Below, piece by piece: positions 2,850 to 50,893 of a DNA stretch of 64,000 nucleotides (its first letter is position 1; every line of letters starts with the position of its first letter). A model generated the notes under the pieces. The model worked only from the letters and a program-made list of their open reading frames with translations. It did not search any database and had not been told where the DNA came from. The position numbers were made by a program, and so were the translations under genes. This DNA comes from Candidatus Electrothrix aestuarii (lineage in GTDB: Bacteria; Desulfobacterota; Desulfobulbia; Desulfobulbales; Desulfobulbaceae), in NCBI GenBank assembly GCA_032595685.2, contig CP159373.1, positions 4,503,821 through 4,567,820 of the forward strand, written 5' to 3'.

Positions 2850-4292
2850 ATGAACAGAGATATTTATCAGGAACCCCTGGTCAGCCGCTATACTTCCCCG
2901 GAAATGCAGGAGCTCTTTTCCGAGCGCTTTAAATTCACCACCTGGCGTCGTTGTTGGATTGCTTTGGCCGAGGCACAGCATGAGCTGGGCCTGGAGCTGG
3001 TGACCCAGGAAATGATCGACGAGCTCAAATCCCATGCTACTGATATAGACTTTGATGTTGCCGCAGCCAAGGAAAAGGAGATCCGCCATGATGTTATGGC
3101 CCATGTTTATGCTTATGGTCTGCAATGCCCCAAGGCTGAGGGCATTATTCACCTGGGAGCTACCTCCCAATTCGTGGTCTGCAATACCGACCTGATTATC
3201 CAGAAGAAGGCCCTCCAGCTAATCAAAAAGACTTTGGTCAATACCATTGCCAATCTCTCTACCTTCTGTCGCAGTTATAAAGATTTGGCTACCTTGGGCT
3301 TCACTCATTACCAGCCTGCTCAGCCCACCACAGTGGGGAAACGTAATACCCTGTATATTCAGGATCTGCTCATGGATCTGGAATATGTCGAGGCCTTAGA
3401 GCTGCAAGTGAAAGCTCGCGGAGCCAAGGGGACCGTAGGCACCCAGGCCACCTTCCTGGAATTGTTCCAAGGAGATCACGCCAAAGTGCGCGAGCTGGAT
3501 ACGCTGGTTTCACAAAAGCTTGGCTTTGATACGGTCTTTGCCGTTACCGGCCAGACCTATCCCCGTAAGCTGGATATGAAGACCGCAGAGACCTTGGCGG
3601 GTATCGGAACCTCTGCCCATAAATTCGCGGTTGATCTTCGTTTACTCTCCAATCTCAAGGTCCAGGAAGAGCCCTTTGCCAAGAAGCAGGTAGGGAGTTC
3701 GGCTATGGCCTATAAGCGTAATCCCATGCGCTCCGAGCGGATGACTGGTCTGGCCCGGAAACTCATGGGGCTGCCTGCTAACTTCGCTGCTACTGCTGGT
3801 AACCAGTGGTTTGAGCGTACTCTGGATGACTCTGCCATCCGTCGTATGGATATGGCCCAGGCCTATCTCCTCACCGATGCGATCCTGAAGCTATACGTCA
3901 ACATCACCAGCGATATGGTAGTTTATCCAAAACAAATAGAGCGATACCTCCGAGCCGAGCTGCCCTTTATGTCCACCGAGAAAATTCTCATGGAATGCGT
4001 GGAGAAAGGAGAGAGCCGTCAGGAGATGCATGAGGTCATTCGTGAGCATTCCGTGGCAGCTGGTTTGGCCGTCAAAGAGCAGGGGCTGGAGAATGATCTC
4101 CTTAATCGTTTGGCCGATGATGAGCGGGTGCCTTTCGGATTGGATGAGCTGGAAGGGATGATCAGCAATTATCAGGAATTTACCGGCAGGGCTGCTGAGC
4201 AGACCGTTGAGTTCCTGGATGAGGTTGTTGCTCCTGTCCTGGAAACATATCAGGATCAGCTTGGTGGGGTTGATGCTTCACTCAAAGTCTGA
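2850..4292 (+). CDS. purB: Adenylosuccinate lyase
   Basis: A 480-residue member of the fumarase/aspartase superfamily. The signature loop is visible as SSAMAYKRNPMRSER, the HDVMAHVYAYG segment carries a conserved His, and GATSQFVVCNTD and TVGTQATF match other active-site stretches. The enzyme catalyses two beta-eliminations of fumarate in purine synthesis: SAICAR to AICAR, and adenylosuccinate to AMP. The length fits the longer (eukaryote/Bacteroidetes-like) purB type. An AAGGAT sequence lies just before the ATG. The gene is preceded by about 140 bp with no clear feature and is followed directly by a DUF4911 gene. Confidence 0.95.
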   Translation: MNRDIYQEPLVSRYTSPEMQELFSERFKFTTWRRCWIALAEAQHELGLELVTQEMIDELKSHATDIDFDVAAAKEKEIRHDVMAHVYAYGLQCPKAEGIIHLGATSQFVVCNTDLIIQKKALQLIKKTLVNTIANLSTFCRSYKDLATLGFTHYQPAQPTTVGKRNTLYIQDLLMDLEYVEALELQVKARGAKGTVGTQATFLELFQGDHAKVRELDTLVSQKLGFDTVFAVTGQTYPRKLDMKTAETLAGIGTSAHKFAVDLRLLSNLKVQEEPFAKKQVGSSAMAYKRNPMRSERMTGLARKLMGLPANFAATAGNQWFERTLDDSAIRRMDMAQAYLLTDAILKLYVNITSDMVVYPKQIERYLRAELPFMSTEKILMECVEKGESRQEMHEVIREHSVAAGLAVKEQGLENDLLNRLADDERVPFGLDELEGMISNYQEFTGRAAEQTVEFLDEVVAPVLETYQDQLGGVDASLKV

Positions 4293-12933: not shown

Positions 12934-13185
12934 GTTTTGCAAGCGGGCCAGCGCAATCTTCATGCGGGCCTTTGCAGAAAAAAAATATTGCCTCGCTTCT
13001 CAAAAGCTAAGGCTTGCAATTACCTTGCGGCTTCTTGCTTTCTTGCTGGAGGCAGTGGATACAAAGAAGCAGGAGCTGGATGTTTTGTTGCGAGGTCTGG
13101 CAAGAAAGAATCCACTGCTTGCAATAAAAAAGTATGTGCTCGCAAGTAAATTGCGGGGGCTCGCTTTCTTCTTGCGAGGGCTTGC
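12934..13185. repeat. Tandem array of twelve degenerate 21-bp units (array 1)
   Basis: Read on the plus strand, twelve consecutive 21-base units without a single indel, each ending in a variant of GCTTGC or GCTCGC. Approximate consensus is WWT-YTT-NTT-GCG-AGG-GCT-TGC; the best-preserved unit is at 13165-13185. Because the unit is a multiple of three, both strands stay open and produce spurious heptad-repeat frames such as LAFFLRG and FFLARPR. The array runs from just upstream of the radical SAM start to the end of a degenerate secreted-protein frame. A second array with the same unit length is at 48918-49232. No CRISPR-like conserved repeat/variable spacer structure. Confidence 0.85.
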
Positions 13186-13198
13186 AATGTTAATAGGG

Positions 13199-13364
13199 TC
13201 AATTCTCCCAAGCCGCGTCTCCTCCCTCCTGGCTGACAAGACGGCGCAACGTATCTATGCCTGTCGGGGTTTCATCGCTATAACCTGCTCCGGGCAGAAA
13301 GGCAAATAATGCAAGAATCAGCAGTATCCTGCTGAAAATTTTTCTGTCTGGCCCGCAGCGGCAT
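13199..13364 (-). pseudogene. Remnant of a small secreted protein, frameshifted near its start
   Basis: A frame on the minus strand encodes a clear signal-peptide-like stretch (FSRILLILALFAFLPGAGYS) followed by about 25 residues ending in GGDAAWEN and a stop at 13199-13201. No start codon exists in that frame. An ATG at 13362-13364 in a neighbouring frame (MPLRARQ) would join it if one A were removed from the AAAAA run near 13335-13339. It is therefore either a decayed gene, a truncated one, or a homopolymer error. Confidence 0.45.
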
Positions 13365-27504: not shown

Positions 27505-29469
27505 TCAGGCATACTCCTGCTTGAGCCATTCCAGCAGGTGCCCAAGATGGATATCCGGGGTCTGCTCCGGTCCCCAATCCAGCGTGGTATGGGCCTGATT
27601 ATCTTTGTCGATAACGTTACGCAACCGTTGTTCCTGCTCATACCATTGCCTCTTGTTTGATCCGTCAGGGCAGGAAGCGGCCTCGGTATCTCCCCAGCGC
27701 AATTCCGGGCAATGATAGGGATCAAAGGAAAGCTTGAACAGGCGATCCATGATTTCCCTCAGCGTCAGAGTAACCTTATCCCCGCTGGAGTCGGTATAAC
27801 GGACCTGCACACCAGATGCGTTTGCCTGCCAGATGGCATCGTACTTGCGCACCAACTCACTGGCACTGCCGCTGAATTCATAGGGATGATTGCCCGAAGC
27901 CACAGCGGTCACGCTCTGCTTCATCAGATCAAACATCTCCCGGACCTGGGCCTTGAGACGTGCATCCCGGCCCGGCGTGGAAAAGGATTCCCACTCGCCC
28001 TCAGTGCCGTATATATTATAGGGCAGGCTTGACGGATGGGCCTTGCGGTGGACCCCCTGTAAGACAGCCGCTTCCACGGATTCCACCCGATCCTGAAGGG
28101 CCTGGTCCAGGGCCGCCATCTGCTGATTGATTTCCCTGATCGGATCAACTCTGCCGCTACCGATAGCCAGCATCCGCTTGACCCATTGGTGATAATCAAG
28201 CACAAGCCCGTCAACCTGATAGCTGTCCTGACATTGGCTTTTGCCGGAGTCGAAGAAGCGGGAATTGGCATTGAACGCCAAGGAAAAGCTGCCGCTGTTG
28301 CTCACCTTTTGCTCCCGCCAGAGTCGGAAGCCTCCTCCCTGTTTGCAGGAACCCCGGGAGAGATGGGCACCGAAACGCTTACTGGTGAGGCTGTTATCCG
28401 GATGAGCATCCACAAACCAGACCGTGCCGTCGTCGTCCACTCTGGAAACCACCAGTACGTGCCCGTTAGGATCGTAATAGATCGTGCCCGGCGCAACACT
28501 GTCCCGGTTCACCTCACAGAGGTAGGTGTCGGTCTTTTCTGTGGTCCAAAGATAACGAAAAAAACCGCTATGAACGAAGTTGGAAATCGCCCTGGCCATG
28601 CTGGCAAAGCTGGAATAATTGAGAAAGGAACTGCGCCTGCCGGGTTGGTTATTATTGGTGTAGCGACCACCGGAGATGCTTGAGTTGAAAGAAAAGGGCA
28701 ACCGTTTCTTATAGCTGAAATAGGCCCGGAGCAGATAGGGCAGATCGGCGCAGTCACAGTGGATGGAAAGGTTGCGGTCTTCCTCCGAATACAGGCTGTT
28801 GCCTGCGGGATTGCGCAGGCAGGCGGCCAGTGATCCTTTCTTGTCGGCAAAGAGCTGCTTCACCCAGTCGGAGAATGCCGCCTCGTAGTCGCGGTCCCAT
28901 TGATTGCGGGCTGTCCAGGCTGCACCTGCACCACCGACATTGATATCCCCGTCCGGCTCCTCCTCAGGTTCTCCAGAGTCTCCAGAGTCTGCCGCCGCAA
29001 CAAGCTCCCTCCACGTTCTGCCACCTACATCAATCCTGCCATCAGGGCGGGACATAAAGGTCGACTGAAAATCCCGAATCGCCTGCATCAGCTCCGCAGA
29101 GCATTCATCGCTGACCGCCAGCGGCGACGGTAAGACTTTATTGAACAGAGCGTAGACAATGCGGACATCACGAGGGCGGTTCTGCCCGCCTGAGTCGCCC
29201 ACTGAACCGGTCAGTTCACCGTCCGAGGCATTGACAGCAGCGTTAAGTTCCCGCCATGTCCTGCCGCCTACATCAATCCTGCCGTCAGGGCGAGACATGA
29301 AGGCTGACTGAAAATCCCGAATCGCCTGCATCAGTTCCGCAGAACATTCATCGCTGACCACCAGCGGTGTCGGTAAAACTTTATTAAACAGAGCGTACAC
29401 GGTACGCACATCCTCGGGACGATTCTCTCCCCCTGCATCACCCACTGAACCGCTGATAGAAACCGGCAT
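27505..29469 (-). CDS. Putative papain-fold cell-wall hydrolase with two peptidoglycan-binding-like modules
   Basis: A 654-residue protein without a signal peptide. Two near-identical 70-residue modules (about 6-75 and 88-156; ISGSVGDAGGENRPEDVR..., each ending PDGRIDVGGRTWREL) resemble peptidoglycan-binding domains. An acidic linker leads to a region with a plausible Cys-His-Asp triad of an NlpC/P60- or CHAP-like fold: C238 or C240 in HCDCADLPYLL, H337 in NGHVLVV and D354 in WFVDAHPD. The C-terminal 250 residues are unrecognised and cysteine-containing. The same module pair heads the deacetylase gene upstream, so both proteins target the same material. Lack of Sec signal suggests a secretion-system effector or another export route. 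Confidence 0.65.
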   Translation of the reverse strand: MPVSISGSVGDAGGENRPEDVRTVYALFNKVLPTPLVVSDECSAELMQAIRDFQSAFMSRPDGRIDVGGRTWRELNAAVNASDGELTGSVGDSGGQNRPRDVRIVYALFNKVLPSPLAVSDECSAELMQAIRDFQSTFMSRPDGRIDVGGRTWRELVAAADSGDSGEPEEEPDGDINVGGAGAAWTARNQWDRDYEAAFSDWVKQLFADKKGSLAACLRNPAGNSLYSEEDRNLSIHCDCADLPYLLRAYFSYKKRLPFSFNSSISGGRYTNNNQPGRRSSFLNYSSFASMARAISNFVHSGFFRYLWTTEKTDTYLCEVNRDSVAPGTIYYDPNGHVLVVSRVDDDGTVWFVDAHPDNSLTSKRFGAHLSRGSCKQGGGFRLWREQKVSNSGSFSLAFNANSRFFDSGKSQCQDSYQVDGLVLDYHQWVKRMLAIGSGRVDPIREINQQMAALDQALQDRVESVEAAVLQGVHRKAHPSSLPYNIYGTEGEWESFSTPGRDARLKAQVREMFDLMKQSVTAVASGNHPYEFSGSASELVRKYDAIWQANASGVQVRYTDSSGDKVTLTLREIMDRLFKLSFDPYHCPELRWGDTEAASCPDGSNKRQWYEQEQRLRNVIDKDNQAHTTLDWGPEQTPDIHLGHLLEWLKQEYA

Positions 29470-47753: not shown

Positions 47754-48299
47754 ATGATCAACAAGAAATCCTATGCTATAGTTTCGCTGACACTGATGAT
47801 TTTACCGTTCTTTGGTGCGATCTATTTTGATACCTTTACGACTGCTTTTTTGGCTGTTCCGGCAATGCTTTATCTGTCGGCGGTTATCCTGAAGGCAGCT
47901 TCATTGTTGATCAAACGAAAACATGTCCATGACAACGCACTCATCATGGTAACTGCATTGCTTTTCCTTCCGGTCATTTTTACGGCGTTGCTTTTGAGCA
48001 ACAGGGGACTACGTGAACTGACTGCGCAGCGGGAACAAATGCTGCAGGAATTGCGGCCAGTTTTTCTAAAATACGCTGAAGACAATAAACGATTTCCTGA
48101 AAATTTAGAGCAGATGGTGCCAAACTATCTTGAGGAGATTCCAATCGTTCTTTTAAATGACAAGAGAAAGGATTCATACAAAAGGATTGCATATTCCGGC
48201 GAGCAAGAAACAGGAGTTTTTTCTTATCACTCCATGCGAGGCCCGGATTCCGGTATTACCTATGATATCGCGAAGGATGAATTTACTCGTGATCAATGA
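47754..48299 (+). CDS. Membrane protein of unknown function with a periplasmic C-terminal domain
   Basis: A 181-residue protein (start ATG 47754; no strong ribosome site). Three membrane helices (YAIVSLTLMILPFFGAIYF, AFLAVPAMLYLSAVILKAASLLI, ALIMVTALLFLPVIFTALLL) precede a 90-residue domain: LRPVFLKYAEDNKRFPENLEQMVPNYLEEIP, a motif common to type II secretion pseudopilin-like and DUF-type periplasmic domains. Function unknown. Confidence 0.6.
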   Translation: MINKKSYAIVSLTLMILPFFGAIYFDTFTTAFLAVPAMLYLSAVILKAASLLIKRKHVHDNALIMVTALLFLPVIFTALLLSNRGLRELTAQREQMLQELRPVFLKYAEDNKRFPENLEQMVPNYLEEIPIVLLNDKRKDSYKRIAYSGEQETGVFSYHSMRGPDSGITYDIAKDEFTRDQ

Positions 48300-48362
48300 A
48301 CAAGTTAGCCGTTTTCGGTGGACTACGGGAGAACCAAAAATGAACAAGGGAAAGATTGAATA

Positions 48363-48581
48363 ATGATCAATAAATCCGACGTAAAAAGAATGCCGCTTAA
48401 CCAGAAGCTCAGGATTATGGAAATGATCTGGGATGACCTGAGTAGCAACGAAGACTCTGTCGACTCACCCTCCTGGCACAAGGATACCCTGCAAGAAAGG
48501 GAAAAAGGACTGGAGACCGGTGACATGACTGCTTCCTCCTGGGAAGAAGCCAAAGAGAGAATCAAAAGGAATGTTACATGA
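48363..48581 (+). CDS. Addiction-module antitoxin (Unstab_antitox family)
   Basis: A 72-residue protein, MPLNQKLRIMEMIWDDLSSNEDSVDSPSWHKDTL plan, which is that of the short antitoxins (PF09720-like) paired with ParE/RelE toxins. The end SWEEAKERIKR is typical. Its stop overlaps the toxin start (ATGA-type, 4 bp). Confidence 0.88.
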   Translation: MINKSDVKRMPLNQKLRIMEMIWDDLSSNEDSVDSPSWHKDTLQEREKGLETGDMTASSWEEAKERIKRNVT

Positions 48582-48874
48582 GAGTAACTATTCTTGATGC
48601 TGCTGAAAAAGACCTTGAATCGGGGTATCGTTTTTATGAAAAGCAATCCCAAGGTCTCGGGATATATTTCCTTGATTCACTGTATTCCGATATAGACTCA
48701 CTGGCCTATTTCGGTGGTGTTCATCAGAAAGTTTACGGCTATCATCGGCTTTTCTCTAAACGATTCCCCTTTGCTGAATATTATCGTCTCACTGACGATG
48801 AGGTACTGGTAACAGCAGTGCTTGACTACCGAAGGAATCCAAGCTGGATAAGAAAGCAACGTACGAACAGCTAA
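48578..48874 (+). CDS. ParE/RelE-superfamily toxin
   Basis: A 98-residue toxin: MRVTILDAAEKDLESGYRFYEKQSQGLG opening, FAEYYRLTDDEVLVTAVLDYRRNPSWIRKQ ending, the usual beta-sheet core of ParE-like proteins. It would poison gyrase or cleave mRNA unless bound by the antitoxin. It is intact and directly followed by the second 21-bp repeat array. Confidence 0.88.
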   Translation: MRVTILDAAEKDLESGYRFYEKQSQGLGIYFLDSLYSDIDSLAYFGGVHQKVYGYHRLFSKRFPFAEYYRLTDDEVLVTAVLDYRRNPSWIRKQRTNS

Positions 48875-48917
48875 TCTTGCTACCAGGAGTATTTCAAGAC
48901 AGTGTGCAGGCTGTATT

Positions 48918-49232
48918 GATGATGAGAGGACAACTTCTTTCAAAAAACGAGGCCCTGCTTTCGTCAGAACATGTCCTTCTTTCTTGGATAGAAGACCTTC
49001 TTTTTAAAAATAGAGAGGCACTTTCGTAAAAAGGAGCCGGATATTTAAGAAAAGAAGCTCTTCTCTCGTTAAGAGGGGTGTCCCTCTTAATGAAAGTTGA
49101 ACCACAATTTAAAAGAGAAGCACTACATTTTAGAAAAGAAGTCCTCCTCTTTTTAATAAGACGCCTACTTTTCTTGAGAGTGCTTGTCCTTTTCTCAAAA
49201 GCACATCGTCTTTCGTGAAAAGAACAACGGCT
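48918..49232. repeat. Tandem array of fifteen degenerate 21-bp units (array 2)
   Basis: Fifteen consecutive units of exactly 21 bases with approximate consensus TTT-CTT-RAA-AGA-AGN-CCT-NCT; well-preserved units are at 48981-49001 and 49128-49148. Unit 16 (49233-49253) is a weak match. The phase holds over 315 bp without an indel although units differ at up to half their positions. Stops occur in most frames, so it is non-coding. The junctions give palindrome-like CTTTT-TTAAAAG stretches. It fills the gap between the ParE toxin and a CoA-binding protein gene; the rest of 48875-49320 holds nothing else. Confidence 0.85.
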
Positions 49233-49320
49233 AAGAACGAAAGAAGAAGCCGCAAGTTCAATCAGTCAAGGTCTACGGTCAAACAAAACGCTTGATCATA
49301 AAAAGGCAGGGAGAATGTTC

Positions 49321-49710
49321 ATGACAGAGGTTGTCGCTGTAATCGGAGCAACAGATAAACCGGATCGATACGCCAATAAGGCAATGCATGCCTTACGAAA
49401 ACATGGGCACAAAGTGATCCTGGTGAATCCCTTTAGGCAAGAGGTTGAGGGGCAGGAATGCCTTGACTCGGTTGCTGACTACGATGGAAGCATTGACACG
49501 GTGACCCTCTATGTTAACCCAAAGCGGTTTGAGGATCATCTTGATGCTGTCATCAAAGTTAAGCCCAAGCGGGTGATCATGAATCCGGGCACAGAAGATG
49601 ATGGGCATCAGCGAATCTTAGAAGAAGCCGGGATAGAGGTTGTTCGGGCCTGCACCTTGGTGTTGCTGTCCACGAATCAGTTTGAACCGGAACAGAGAGA
49701 AAAAAGATAA
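49321..49710 (+). CDS. CoA-binding-domain protein (YccU-like)
   Basis: A 129-residue Rossmann-like protein: VVAVIGATDKPDRYANKAMHALRKHGHKVILVNP, TVTLYVNPKRFEDHL, VIMNPGTEDD. Members of this CoA_binding_2 family bind CoA but have no known enzymatic role. The start at 49321 is preferred because GGGAG lies at good distance; an ATG at 49315 also exists. It is 4 bp before the Fe-S membrane protein gene, so they are likely co-transcribed. Confidence 0.85.
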   Translation: MTEVVAVIGATDKPDRYANKAMHALRKHGHKVILVNPFRQEVEGQECLDSVADYDGSIDTVTLYVNPKRFEDHLDAVIKVKPKRVIMNPGTEDDGHQRILEEAGIEVVRACTLVLLSTNQFEPEQREKR

Positions 49711-49714
49711 AGCA

Positions 49715-50893
49715 ATGACTGCAAAAACACGGGTGTTCTTTCTATTGAGCCTCCTGCTGATCACTGTTATCGGCACCTCTCATATATCGACCAAAATTTG
49801 GGGTGGAAAGCCGGAAAAACTCCCCAATGATATTGAGTTGGTTCTCAGTCCTGAGATGTCGCTCAAGGAGTTTGGTCAGAAAAATGATCTACCGAATCCG
49901 GTCTTAAAAAAAGTTTTCCAGCTTCAACAGAAGCAGGATTTGCAAAAAAAGCTTTCTGAAACCGGAATCGCACTTGCCGATATTGAACGGAAAATAAAAA
50001 GAGCTGCTGCTCTGGAAGAAGAACATCAGTCCAAGAACTGGATCAAAATTCCGGTGAAATTTGGGCTCTGGTTTATCTTCCTTGGGCTTTGTTTTCACCT
50101 GATCCGTAAAGGAAAAATAACACCTGGGGCAAGGAAGATTCTTTATCTGACAGCCGTTGTCCTCTTCGGTGTTATCCTGGGCGCTGATCCCGGCGCAATG
50201 GGTACCATCAAGGATGCCATCGCCCTCTATGGTGCCAAAGGAGTAATTTTTCCGCCGAGGATGATCGCGATGACGGTCTTCCTTCTCCTGGTTCTGCTGG
50301 CCAATAAATTTATCTGCGGCTGGGGCTGCCAGCTCGGCACCTTGCAGGATCTTATCTTCCGGCTGAATCGCGAGAAAAAGGAGAGAAAGAGCATCTTCCC
50401 ACAGTTCAGATTGCCCTTTGTGCTGACGAACGCTGTGCGCATCGTCTTTTTTATCGCCTTTACCCTGATTGCCTTTGCCTGGGCCACGGACATCATAGAC
50501 CCTATTGATCCGTTTAAAATCTTCAAGCCCGCAATGATCAAGCCGTTGGGCTGGGGTTTTATTCTCGGCATCCTCATCCTGAGCCTTTTTGTCTACCGGC
50601 CTTGGTGTCAGCTCTTCTGCCCCTTTGGTCTGGTGGGCTGGCTTGTGGAGAAGGCTTCCATCTTCAAGGTGAAGGTCAACTATGATACCTGCATCGGCTG
50701 CGAGGCATGCACCAAGGCCTGTCCATCCACCGCAATGGAGGCTATTTTAAAACAGGAAAAAACAATTCCTGATTGTTTTTCCTGCGCTTCGTGCATAGAT
50801 GTATGTCCGACAGGGTCTGTGCAATTCCAGGCGGGAAAACGGGAAAAGCCGCCTGAAGGAAAGTTTACAGGTAAAAAAGTAAGCAGGAGCTGA
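49715..50893 (+). CDS. Membrane-bound 4Fe-4S protein (NapH/RnfE-like)
   Basis: A 392-residue inner-membrane protein. An N-terminal membrane anchor and a periplasmic helical region (about 25-105) come first, then five membrane helices with the paired CxxxC sites of NapH-type proteins (ICGWGCQLG and PWCQLFCPFG). The C-terminal cytosolic part has two 4Fe-4S ferredoxin motifs: CIGCEACTKACP and CFSCASCIDVCP. Probably passes electrons between the quinone pool and a periplasmic or cytosolic partner, as NapH does; the partner is not encoded nearby. Confidence 0.85.
   Translation: MTAKTRVFFLLSLLLITVIGTSHISTKIWGGKPEKLPNDIELVLSPEMSLKEFGQKNDLPNPVLKKVFQLQQKQDLQKKLSETGIALADIERKIKRAAALEEEHQSKNWIKIPVKFGLWFIFLGLCFHLIRKGKITPGARKILYLTAVVLFGVILGADPGAMGTIKDAIALYGAKGVIFPPRMIAMTVFLLLVLLANKFICGWGCQLGTLQDLIFRLNREKKERKSIFPQFRLPFVLTNAVRIVFFIAFTLIAFAWATDIIDPIDPFKIFKPAMIKPLGWGFILGILILSLFVYRPWCQLFCPFGLVGWLVEKASIFKVKVNYDTCIGCEACTKACPSTAMEAILKQEKTIPDCFSCASCIDVCPTGSVQFQAGKREKPPEGKFTGKKVSRS

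What the first reader, a model, noticed from the sequence alone, without database searches (positions are those of the whole stretch)
48918..49232. Array 2: fifteen 21-bp units of a different consensus at an unlinked locus
A second array has the same unit length and same indel-free behaviour, but a different base pattern (TTT-CTT-RAA-AGA-AGN-CCT-NCT). Both arrays start units with TTTCTT-like bases and contain an AG around position 13-14. Two unlinked arrays with equal period but drifting consensus suggest a family of elements under a spacing constraint that co-evolve locally, not simple slippage repeats. This looks like an undescribed class of intergenic array; stop codons exclude a long protein in most frames.
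Basis: partly seen in the sequence, partly recalled or inferred. Interest (0 to 1): 0.78.

Follow-up and report, generated by a model that had tools for sequence, protein, structure and literature searches.

The report
Orphan 21-base palindrome array, cable bacterium
This stretch is a non-coding row of about sixteen palindromic 21-base units that lacks its usual partner: elsewhere in cable bacteria, and in one cyanobacterium, such rows sit directly in front of a small gene of unknown function, which points to an undescribed two-part module.

Summary
The array is real: at 48,916-49,265 about sixteen degenerate 21-bp units without internal indels; none of 1000 dinucleotide shuffles reaches its score. 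The genome is, by orthologues, a Candidatus Electrothrix. Array 2 belongs to a family. Of 33 copies of an undescribed ~115-aa gene ("GGTR gene", for its GGTR-x-SER motif), 31 have a period-21 or -42 array upstream, against 2 of 31 downstream flanks; in 26 further copies fetched as a check, 26 do. Both cyanobacterial copies found have arrays too. Dyad symmetry exceeds mirror symmetry in all 44 arrays analysed first (40 at p<0.05) and in 25 of 25 check arrays (19 at p<0.05). Spacing is 21 at 561 of 580 junctions. Most arrays have no open sense frame. Array 2 and its E. gigas homologue lack the gene.

Mechanism is inferred: a multi-site platform for its own small basic protein, slightly more likely as a transcribed leader of tandem hairpins than as DNA operators. 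Compensatory changes are weak.

The parts
48916..49265 (-). Array 2: about 16 dyad-symmetric 21-bp units, orphan (no GGTR gene beside it). Strand is tentative: the minus-strand RNA folds slightly more stably.
   Evidence: (MFE plus -99.1, minus -107.8)
48932..49246 (.). Core of array 2 used for the shuffles and for comparison with near relative G007 (3 substitutions, 0 gaps in 315)
49004..49156 (.). About seven units of array 2 that align at 81% to the array of Ca. E. gigas (L003 3852-4005)
12934..13206 (+).
   Evidence: similarity 0.91 plus strand, 0.85 minus strand
48363..48581 (+). Neighbour: antitoxin of a putative addiction module (PF09720); not part of the array system
48578..48874 (+). 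Neighbour: partner ORF of the antitoxin, RelE/ParE-like by eye (recalled; no Pfam hit at 1e-3)
49315..49710 (+). Neighbour: CoA-binding protein gene (PF13380); in L002 it follows RNase H after ~130 bp, without array or toxin-antitoxin genes

Best explanation
Shown by computation: array 2 is an orphan member of a family of non-coding arrays of about 5-22 dyad-symmetric units with a fixed 21-bp pitch. Elsewhere these arrays form the upstream half of a two-part module whose other half is a small gene (~115-130 aa, ending in ...DSxEYxMxGGTRxSERKK and a basic tail). Inferred: the array is transcribed with the gene as a leader of tandem short hairpins, and the small basic protein binds the units of its own leader side by side, making a regular ribonucleoprotein that controls its own expression or acts as an RNA-protein partner pair, comparable in logic to (but not a member of) type III toxin-antitoxin loci. 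Each duplicated module then drifts to its own unit sequence while pitch and palindromy stay. Array 2 is what remains, or was copied, without the gene.
For: Association: 31 of 33 gene copies have an upstream array, 2 of 31 downstream flanks, 3 of 560 tiles of 700 bp of G000; check set 26 of 26; together 57 of 59. One of the two misses has its array about 1.7 kb further up, behind a 516-codon ORF. Two of two Kovacikia copies have arrays. The six genomes with R1 array hits at E<1e-4 (G000-G003, G007, G016) are all among the 10 of 57 searched genomes with the gene. Dyads: 44 of 44 above mirror, 40 at p<0.05; check set 25 of 25, 19 at p<0.05. Pitch 21 at 561 of 580 junctions. Non-coding: no open sense frame in 20 of 29 and 20 of 25 gene arrays. 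Array consensus tracks protein identity, Mantel r=0.54, 0 of 5000. RNA level: gene-sense RNA more stable in 24 of 25 and 18 of 25 arrays, against 46 of 92 mostly non-ORF and 108 of 188 upstream regions; together 42 of 50, Fisher 6e-5 and 5e-4. GT mismatches better kept than AC, ratio 1.19 [1.04-1.41]. Covariation in the MIGGS subfamily (Stouffer 2.7 over 9) and in one Kovacikia array (z 3.1). A conserved block with TTGCnC-17-TATCAR upstream of the array in three MLTGS copies (read from the alignment).
Against: Against dinucleotide shuffles the sense-antisense difference is only Stouffer -1.71. Within-unit covariation over all 29 gene arrays is weak (Stouffer 1.23) and nil in the MLTRS, SKS, MLTGS and MAY groups. 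An exact 21-bp pitch is explained more simply by DNA helical phase. Two MAY-type copies (L186, L194) have a sigma70-like promoter between array and gene, so there the array would lie outside the gene's transcript; the promoter scan finds no sense-strand promoter in the stretches scanned around the arrays of L162, L159 and L178. Nine of 29 gene arrays have an open sense frame. No RNA-seq or binding data. Array 2's own folding asymmetry is small and points away from the downstream gene. The Mantel result can come from joint inheritance alone.
Confidence: 0.36

Rival explanations
1. DNA operator array: a dimeric protein (the GGTR protein or another factor) binds palindromic units spaced by two helical turns on one face of the DNA, forming a cooperative filament that regulates the downstream gene or organises the chromosome locally.
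Against: Gene-sense folding preference in 42 of 50 arrays against 46 of 92 controls. No DNA-binding domain: only sub-threshold matches in Pfam and, for the SPKLL-type proteins tested, in NCBIfam and PHROGs, none in PADLOC. Unit sequence differs widely between paralogues whose C-terminus is nearly invariant.
Confidence: 0.33
2. Selfish or relic repeats: the units are spread by in-register unit duplication and recombination and by mobility of the array-gene module; the array has no present function, above all when orphaned as here.
For: Whole-unit gains and losses between near relatives (compare L077 with L145, L139 with L144), nearly homogenised arrays (L149, lag identity 0.95; L228 and L230), different flanks of paralogues, location among toxin-antitoxin, Uma2, RT and methylase genes, 15 analysed arrays without the gene.
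Against: Seven units of array 2 keep 81% identity to E. gigas, like the four longest coding alignments around it (80-84%); palindromy and pitch persist at ~50% unit identity; association with the gene in two phyla.
Confidence: 0.2
3. Coding: the array encodes a heptad-repeat protein (21 bp = 7 codons) or is its decayed remains.
For: 21 is 7 codons; several arrays show one long open frame with xSFVKRG-like or LAxxLRG-like heptads; one minus frame of array 2 is open.
Against: No open sense frame in 20 of 29 and 20 of 25 gene arrays, none in six in 15 of 29 and 18 of 25; the E. gigas homologue has stops in all six frames, and one plus-strand stop is shared with array 2 (alignment).
Confidence: 0.05

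Closest known systems
Type III toxin-antitoxin loci (ToxIN, CptIN, TenpIN)
   Same: Tandem array of short repeats directly upstream of a gene; repeat length conserved within a group, repeat number variable, repeat sequence group-specific (PMC5086642, passages read).
   Different: Repeats there are 34-36 nt in 2.8-5.5 copies in the examples read; here 21 nt in about 5-22 degenerate copies. No match to a toxin family and no terminator consistently placed between array and gene.
REP elements and REPtrons (RAYT transposase)
   Same: Palindromic intergenic units with a partner gene; orphans without it (PMC3733652, passages read).
   Different: REPs are 20-40 bp palindromes tagged GTAG or CGTC, not rows of units in a fixed pitch; their partner is a tyrosine transposase with an HUH motif, here a small protein without such a match.
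Iterons / operator arrays of self-regulating DNA-binding proteins
   Same: Phased tandem sites beside the gene of the binding protein (recalled).
   Different: Mostly chromosomal, up to 14 matches to the gene per genome (fragments included), no replication-initiator match, units only ~50% alike.
CRISPR and TIGR-Tas arrays
   Same: Arrays of short units beside a gene (recalled).
   Different: No invariant repeat alternating with unique spacers; no Cas- or Nop-type match among the 20 ORFs scanned with Pfam; no Rfam match.

Membership tests
Type III toxin-antitoxin | Tandem nucleotide repeats directly upstream of the protein gene | tested here: met
   57 of 59 gene copies; array 2 itself has no such gene
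Type III toxin-antitoxin | Protein homologous to ToxN/CptN/TenpN endoribonuclease | tested here: not met
   Only unrelated sub-threshold matches in Pfam, NCBIfam, PHROGs; none in PADLOC; by sequence only, no fold comparison made
Type III toxin-antitoxin | Rho-independent terminator between repeats and gene | tested here: inconclusive
   Terminator-like hairpin between array and gene in L162, none placed there in L159 and L178 (3 of 59 loci scanned)
REP / REPtron | RAYT (HUH tyrosine transposase) partner gene | tested here: not met
   Partner gene has no transposase match
CRISPR | Near-identical direct repeats separated by unique spacers of constant length | tested here: not met
   Contiguous units ~50% alike, no spacer pattern
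Known structured RNA family (Rfam 15) | Match above gathering score | tested here: not met
   0 matches over 13 gene loci; two sub-threshold matches in window 48000-50000, both outside the array
Heptad-repeat protein gene | One open frame kept across the repeat in relatives | tested here: not met
   E. gigas homologue interrupted in all six frames
Phased DNA operator / iteron array | Dyad-symmetric sites at integral helical-turn spacing | tested here: met
Phased DNA operator / iteron array | Sequence-specific binding by the neighbouring protein | not testable with these tools
   needs a binding assay

The most novel reading that the evidence does not exclude
A previously undescribed class of genetic module shared by cable bacteria, some relatives and at least one cyanobacterium: a small conserved GGTR protein whose gene copies each carry their own private array of 21-nt palindromes, array and protein forming a regular RNA-protein (or DNA-protein) assembly whose unit sequence is free to drift as long as pitch and palindromy are kept. 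Array 2 is an orphan of it.
Probability: 0.42. Interest if true: 0.85.

Novelty: categorically new. Interest (0 to 1): 0.72.

Why it matters
It turns an odd repeat into a defined two-part locus with a search key (the protein) and testable biochemistry. A small protein family without any Pfam match above cut-off is tied, in 57 of 59 copies and in two phyla, to non-coding arrays of fixed pitch but private sequence. Slippage, coding and the known array systems compared here do not explain that combination. It also gives cable bacteria, described as currently unculturable (PMC10926707, start of abstract), a multi-copy element of unknown role.

Tried and rejected
Tandem Repeats Finder does not list the array. 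Rfam: nothing in array 2, nothing on 13 gene loci. blastn of array 2 in phages and plasmids: none. GGTR protein: none in viral contigs; none in plasmids with the SPKLL-type query, one plasmid record with the MAY-type and Kovacikia queries; none in phages with the MAY-type query (the SPKLL type was not run there); in phylum samples 1 of 395 and 1 of 297 genomes, both times only the window's own. No support for a phage origin. Coding heptads mostly rejected. Gene remnant in the window: none at E 0.5; beside the other gene-less arrays only one 15-residue match inside the RT ORF of L140, E 0.11. Overlapping 63-mers aligned badly, replaced by non-overlapping 42-mers. A TTTnGGG leader motif seen by eye did not hold. 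RNA hairpins with compensatory change were expected and mostly not found. Papers: 10 searches listed nothing that by title or abstract start deals with these arrays; passages were read of PMC10926707, PMC10580974, PMC5086642 and PMC3733652, no whole paper; most subscription journals are not held.

Rows dropped before counts: one search gives 70 matches of the protein, fragments included; 30 came as loci, 27 more were fetched as a check, and 13 were not fetched from that list (ten fragments, and three copies seen through). L165 and L227 (no start codon found) and L190 (same gene as L185) were dropped before the 33 and 26; one of the 33 (L194) came only. L164, L173, L174, L181, L193 (below the extent threshold) were dropped before the 29 gene arrays, which are 28 from Electrothrix and relatives plus one of two Kovacikia arrays; L176, L179, L169, L166 as near-duplicates or short before the 25 (of these four, three have the sense strand more stable and L166 the antisense; 27 of 29 in all); L222 (below threshold) before the 25; L166 and Kovacikia are not in the 27 of the Mantel test. 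The 15 'other' arrays were picked from model hits and period scans, not drawn at random. The 561 of 580 count rests on a score that penalises other spacings and on extents found by period 21. Paralogues and orthologues are not independent cases.

Full report
WHERE IT IS. Orthologues of the downstream gene place the window in Candidatus Electrothrix: 77% identity to Ca. E. gigas contig QYLO01000017, whose length equals that of contig C70 of same-genus genome G002. The window is part of a single-contig 5.11-Mb genome, G000. Array 2 lies between a toxin-antitoxin-like pair at 48,363-48,874 (antitoxin PF09720; partner without Pfam hit) and a CoA-binding gene at 49,315.

OBSERVATION. The array is far beyond chance and the strongest periodicity of the window. 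Units are imperfect palindromes, about CTTCTTT-n3-5-AAAAGAAG. Against near relative G007 the array has 3 substitutions and no gaps in 315 bp, the flanks 5 in 454 and 3 in 532, so at this distance it is no more conserved than its flanks. Ca. E. gigas has a homologous array (about 18 units, L003 about 3,805-4,200); some seven consecutive units align at 81% over 154 bp, like the four longest coding alignments (80-84%), while the rest of the array aligns poorly and the gene order around it differs. In L002 RNase H and the CoA-binding gene are neighbours, without toxin-antitoxin genes or array.

A FAMILY OF ARRAYS. A sequence model of 21 two-unit pieces from three arrays (R1) finds four strong clusters in G000 (1,559,489-1,559,814; 1,869,569-1,869,776; 2,594,030-2,594,301; array 2) and weaker ones, and arrays in G001, G002, G003, G007 and G016 (at most 150 candidates per genome are scored). 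Other Electrothrix genomes have few or none (G004 two and G006 two weak matches, G005 none). Neighbours of gene-less arrays include Uma2, a C5 DNA methylase and an RT-Schlafen ORF.

THE PARTNER GENE. Directly downstream of many arrays is a ~115-aa ORF ending in GGTR-x-SER-KK. It gives only sub-threshold matches in Pfam, NCBIfam and PHROGs, none in PADLOC (SPKLL types only) and nothing convincing in the PDB. It occurs in 10 of 57 genomes searched, own included, with 70 matches (fragments counted), up to 14 in one genome, in subfamilies named here by their N-termini (MIGGS, MLTRS, MLTGS, SKS, MAY/MAF). Of the 33 copies with a usable start that came first, 31 have a period-21 or -42 tract (score 0.45 or more) in the 700 bp upstream; 2 of 31 downstream flanks, 3 of 560 G000 tiles, 7 of 280 G012 tiles and 3 of 280 G006 tiles reach that score. 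The threshold was set on these, so 27 further copies were fetched as a check: 26 have a start codon and 26 of 26 pass. The two misses are L173, whose array is found about 1.7 kb further upstream behind a 516-codon ORF, and L193, which has other ORFs upstream and no array found. Outside the phylum, the plasmid pA of the cyanobacterium Kovacikia minuta has two copies, both with arrays (lag-21 identity 0.73; lag-42 0.76 with lag-21 0.59). Samples of the own phylum hit only G000, so the distribution is narrow and patchy.

ANATOMY OF THE ARRAYS. Over 44 arrays (29 with the gene, 15 without) the column profile scores higher for dyad than for mirror symmetry in 44 of 44; the dyad exceeds column permutations at p<0.05 in 40 of 44 (exceptions L179, L191, L194, Kovacikia). 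Spacing is 21 at 561 of 580 junctions when each of the 44 arrays is re-fitted with 170 bp of flank; the 19 deviations are in 9 arrays, many near array ends. Consensus half-sites vary with gene subfamily: CTTT/AAAG-like in MIGGS and SKS, CCTTTT/AAAAGG in MLTGS (related to the former), GCAA/TTGC in MLTRS, others in MAY. Array similarity rises with protein identity (Mantel r 0.54, 0 of 5000; 0.43 for pairs under 85% identity); joint inheritance suffices to explain this. Array 2 is nearest to MIGGS arrays (0.94), array 1 to MLTRS arrays (0.91). Some arrays have a 42-bp super-period. Near relatives differ by whole units.

CODING OR NOT.

DNA OR RNA. For RNA: the gene-sense transcript is predicted more stable than the antisense one in 24 of 25 arrays, against 108 of 188 upstream regions and 46 of 92 mostly non-ORF ones of the same genome; GT mismatches are better tolerated than AC at the dyad, ratio 1.19 [1.04-1.41]; MIGGS arrays and Kovacikia show covariation. 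Against: the check set gives 18 of 25 (Fisher 0.07 and 0.20 against the two controls; pooled 42 of 50, 6e-5 and 5e-4); covariation over all 29 is Stouffer 1.23; the strand effect beyond dinucleotide content is Stouffer -1.71; the arrays are related, so they are not independent cases. For DNA: the exact two-turn pitch, and sigma70-like promoters between array and gene in two MAY-type copies.

ARRAY 2 ITSELF. No remnant of the gene is detectable in the window. Its minus-strand RNA folds slightly better (-107.8 against -99.1), as in the E. gigas homologue (-127.7 against -110.3), so it is probably not a leader of the CoA-binding gene. Whether it still works, for instance with a protein made elsewhere in the genome, is open; G000 has no close MIGGS gene (best 63% identity) although it has four MIGGS-like arrays.

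NOVELTY. No library or paper search named in Tried and rejected described it. The membership tests speak against type III toxin-antitoxin (protein), REP/REPtron and CRISPR. 'Categorically new' is my rating of the array-gene module, not of a proven mechanism. Not excluded: a description in a journal that is not held.

Noticed in passing
L140 4672-6243 (G000:C1 about 2,594,672-2,596,243): ORF with a reverse transcriptase domain (RVT_1) followed by a Schlafen AlbA_2 domain, ~360 bp downstream of a MIGGS-like array.
   Followed up: no
L149 2963-3215 (G003:C1); upstream of the genes in L228 and L230 (G003): Some arrays are nearly homogenised (lag identity 0.95-1.00), recent expansions, while most of the family is ~50% alike.
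   Followed up: no
L164, L179, L182, L183, L184, L206: Some arrays have a stronger 42-bp than 21-bp period: two unit types seem to alternate.
   Followed up: partly
L211 4366-6335; L214 10917-11591 and 12058-14991: A MAY-type GGTR gene lies beside caspase and TPR genes in Electrothrix, and the Kovacikia copies lie near CHAT/TPR genes, a possible shared context across phyla.
   Followed up: partly
window 29002-29452: A 243-bp tandem duplication, 84% matches, 1.9 copies.
   Followed up: no
L002 10652-10840: Another period-21 array with an unrelated consensus and units that seem to flip strand midway; no GGTR gene found beside it and the weakest palindromy of the 44.
   Followed up: partly
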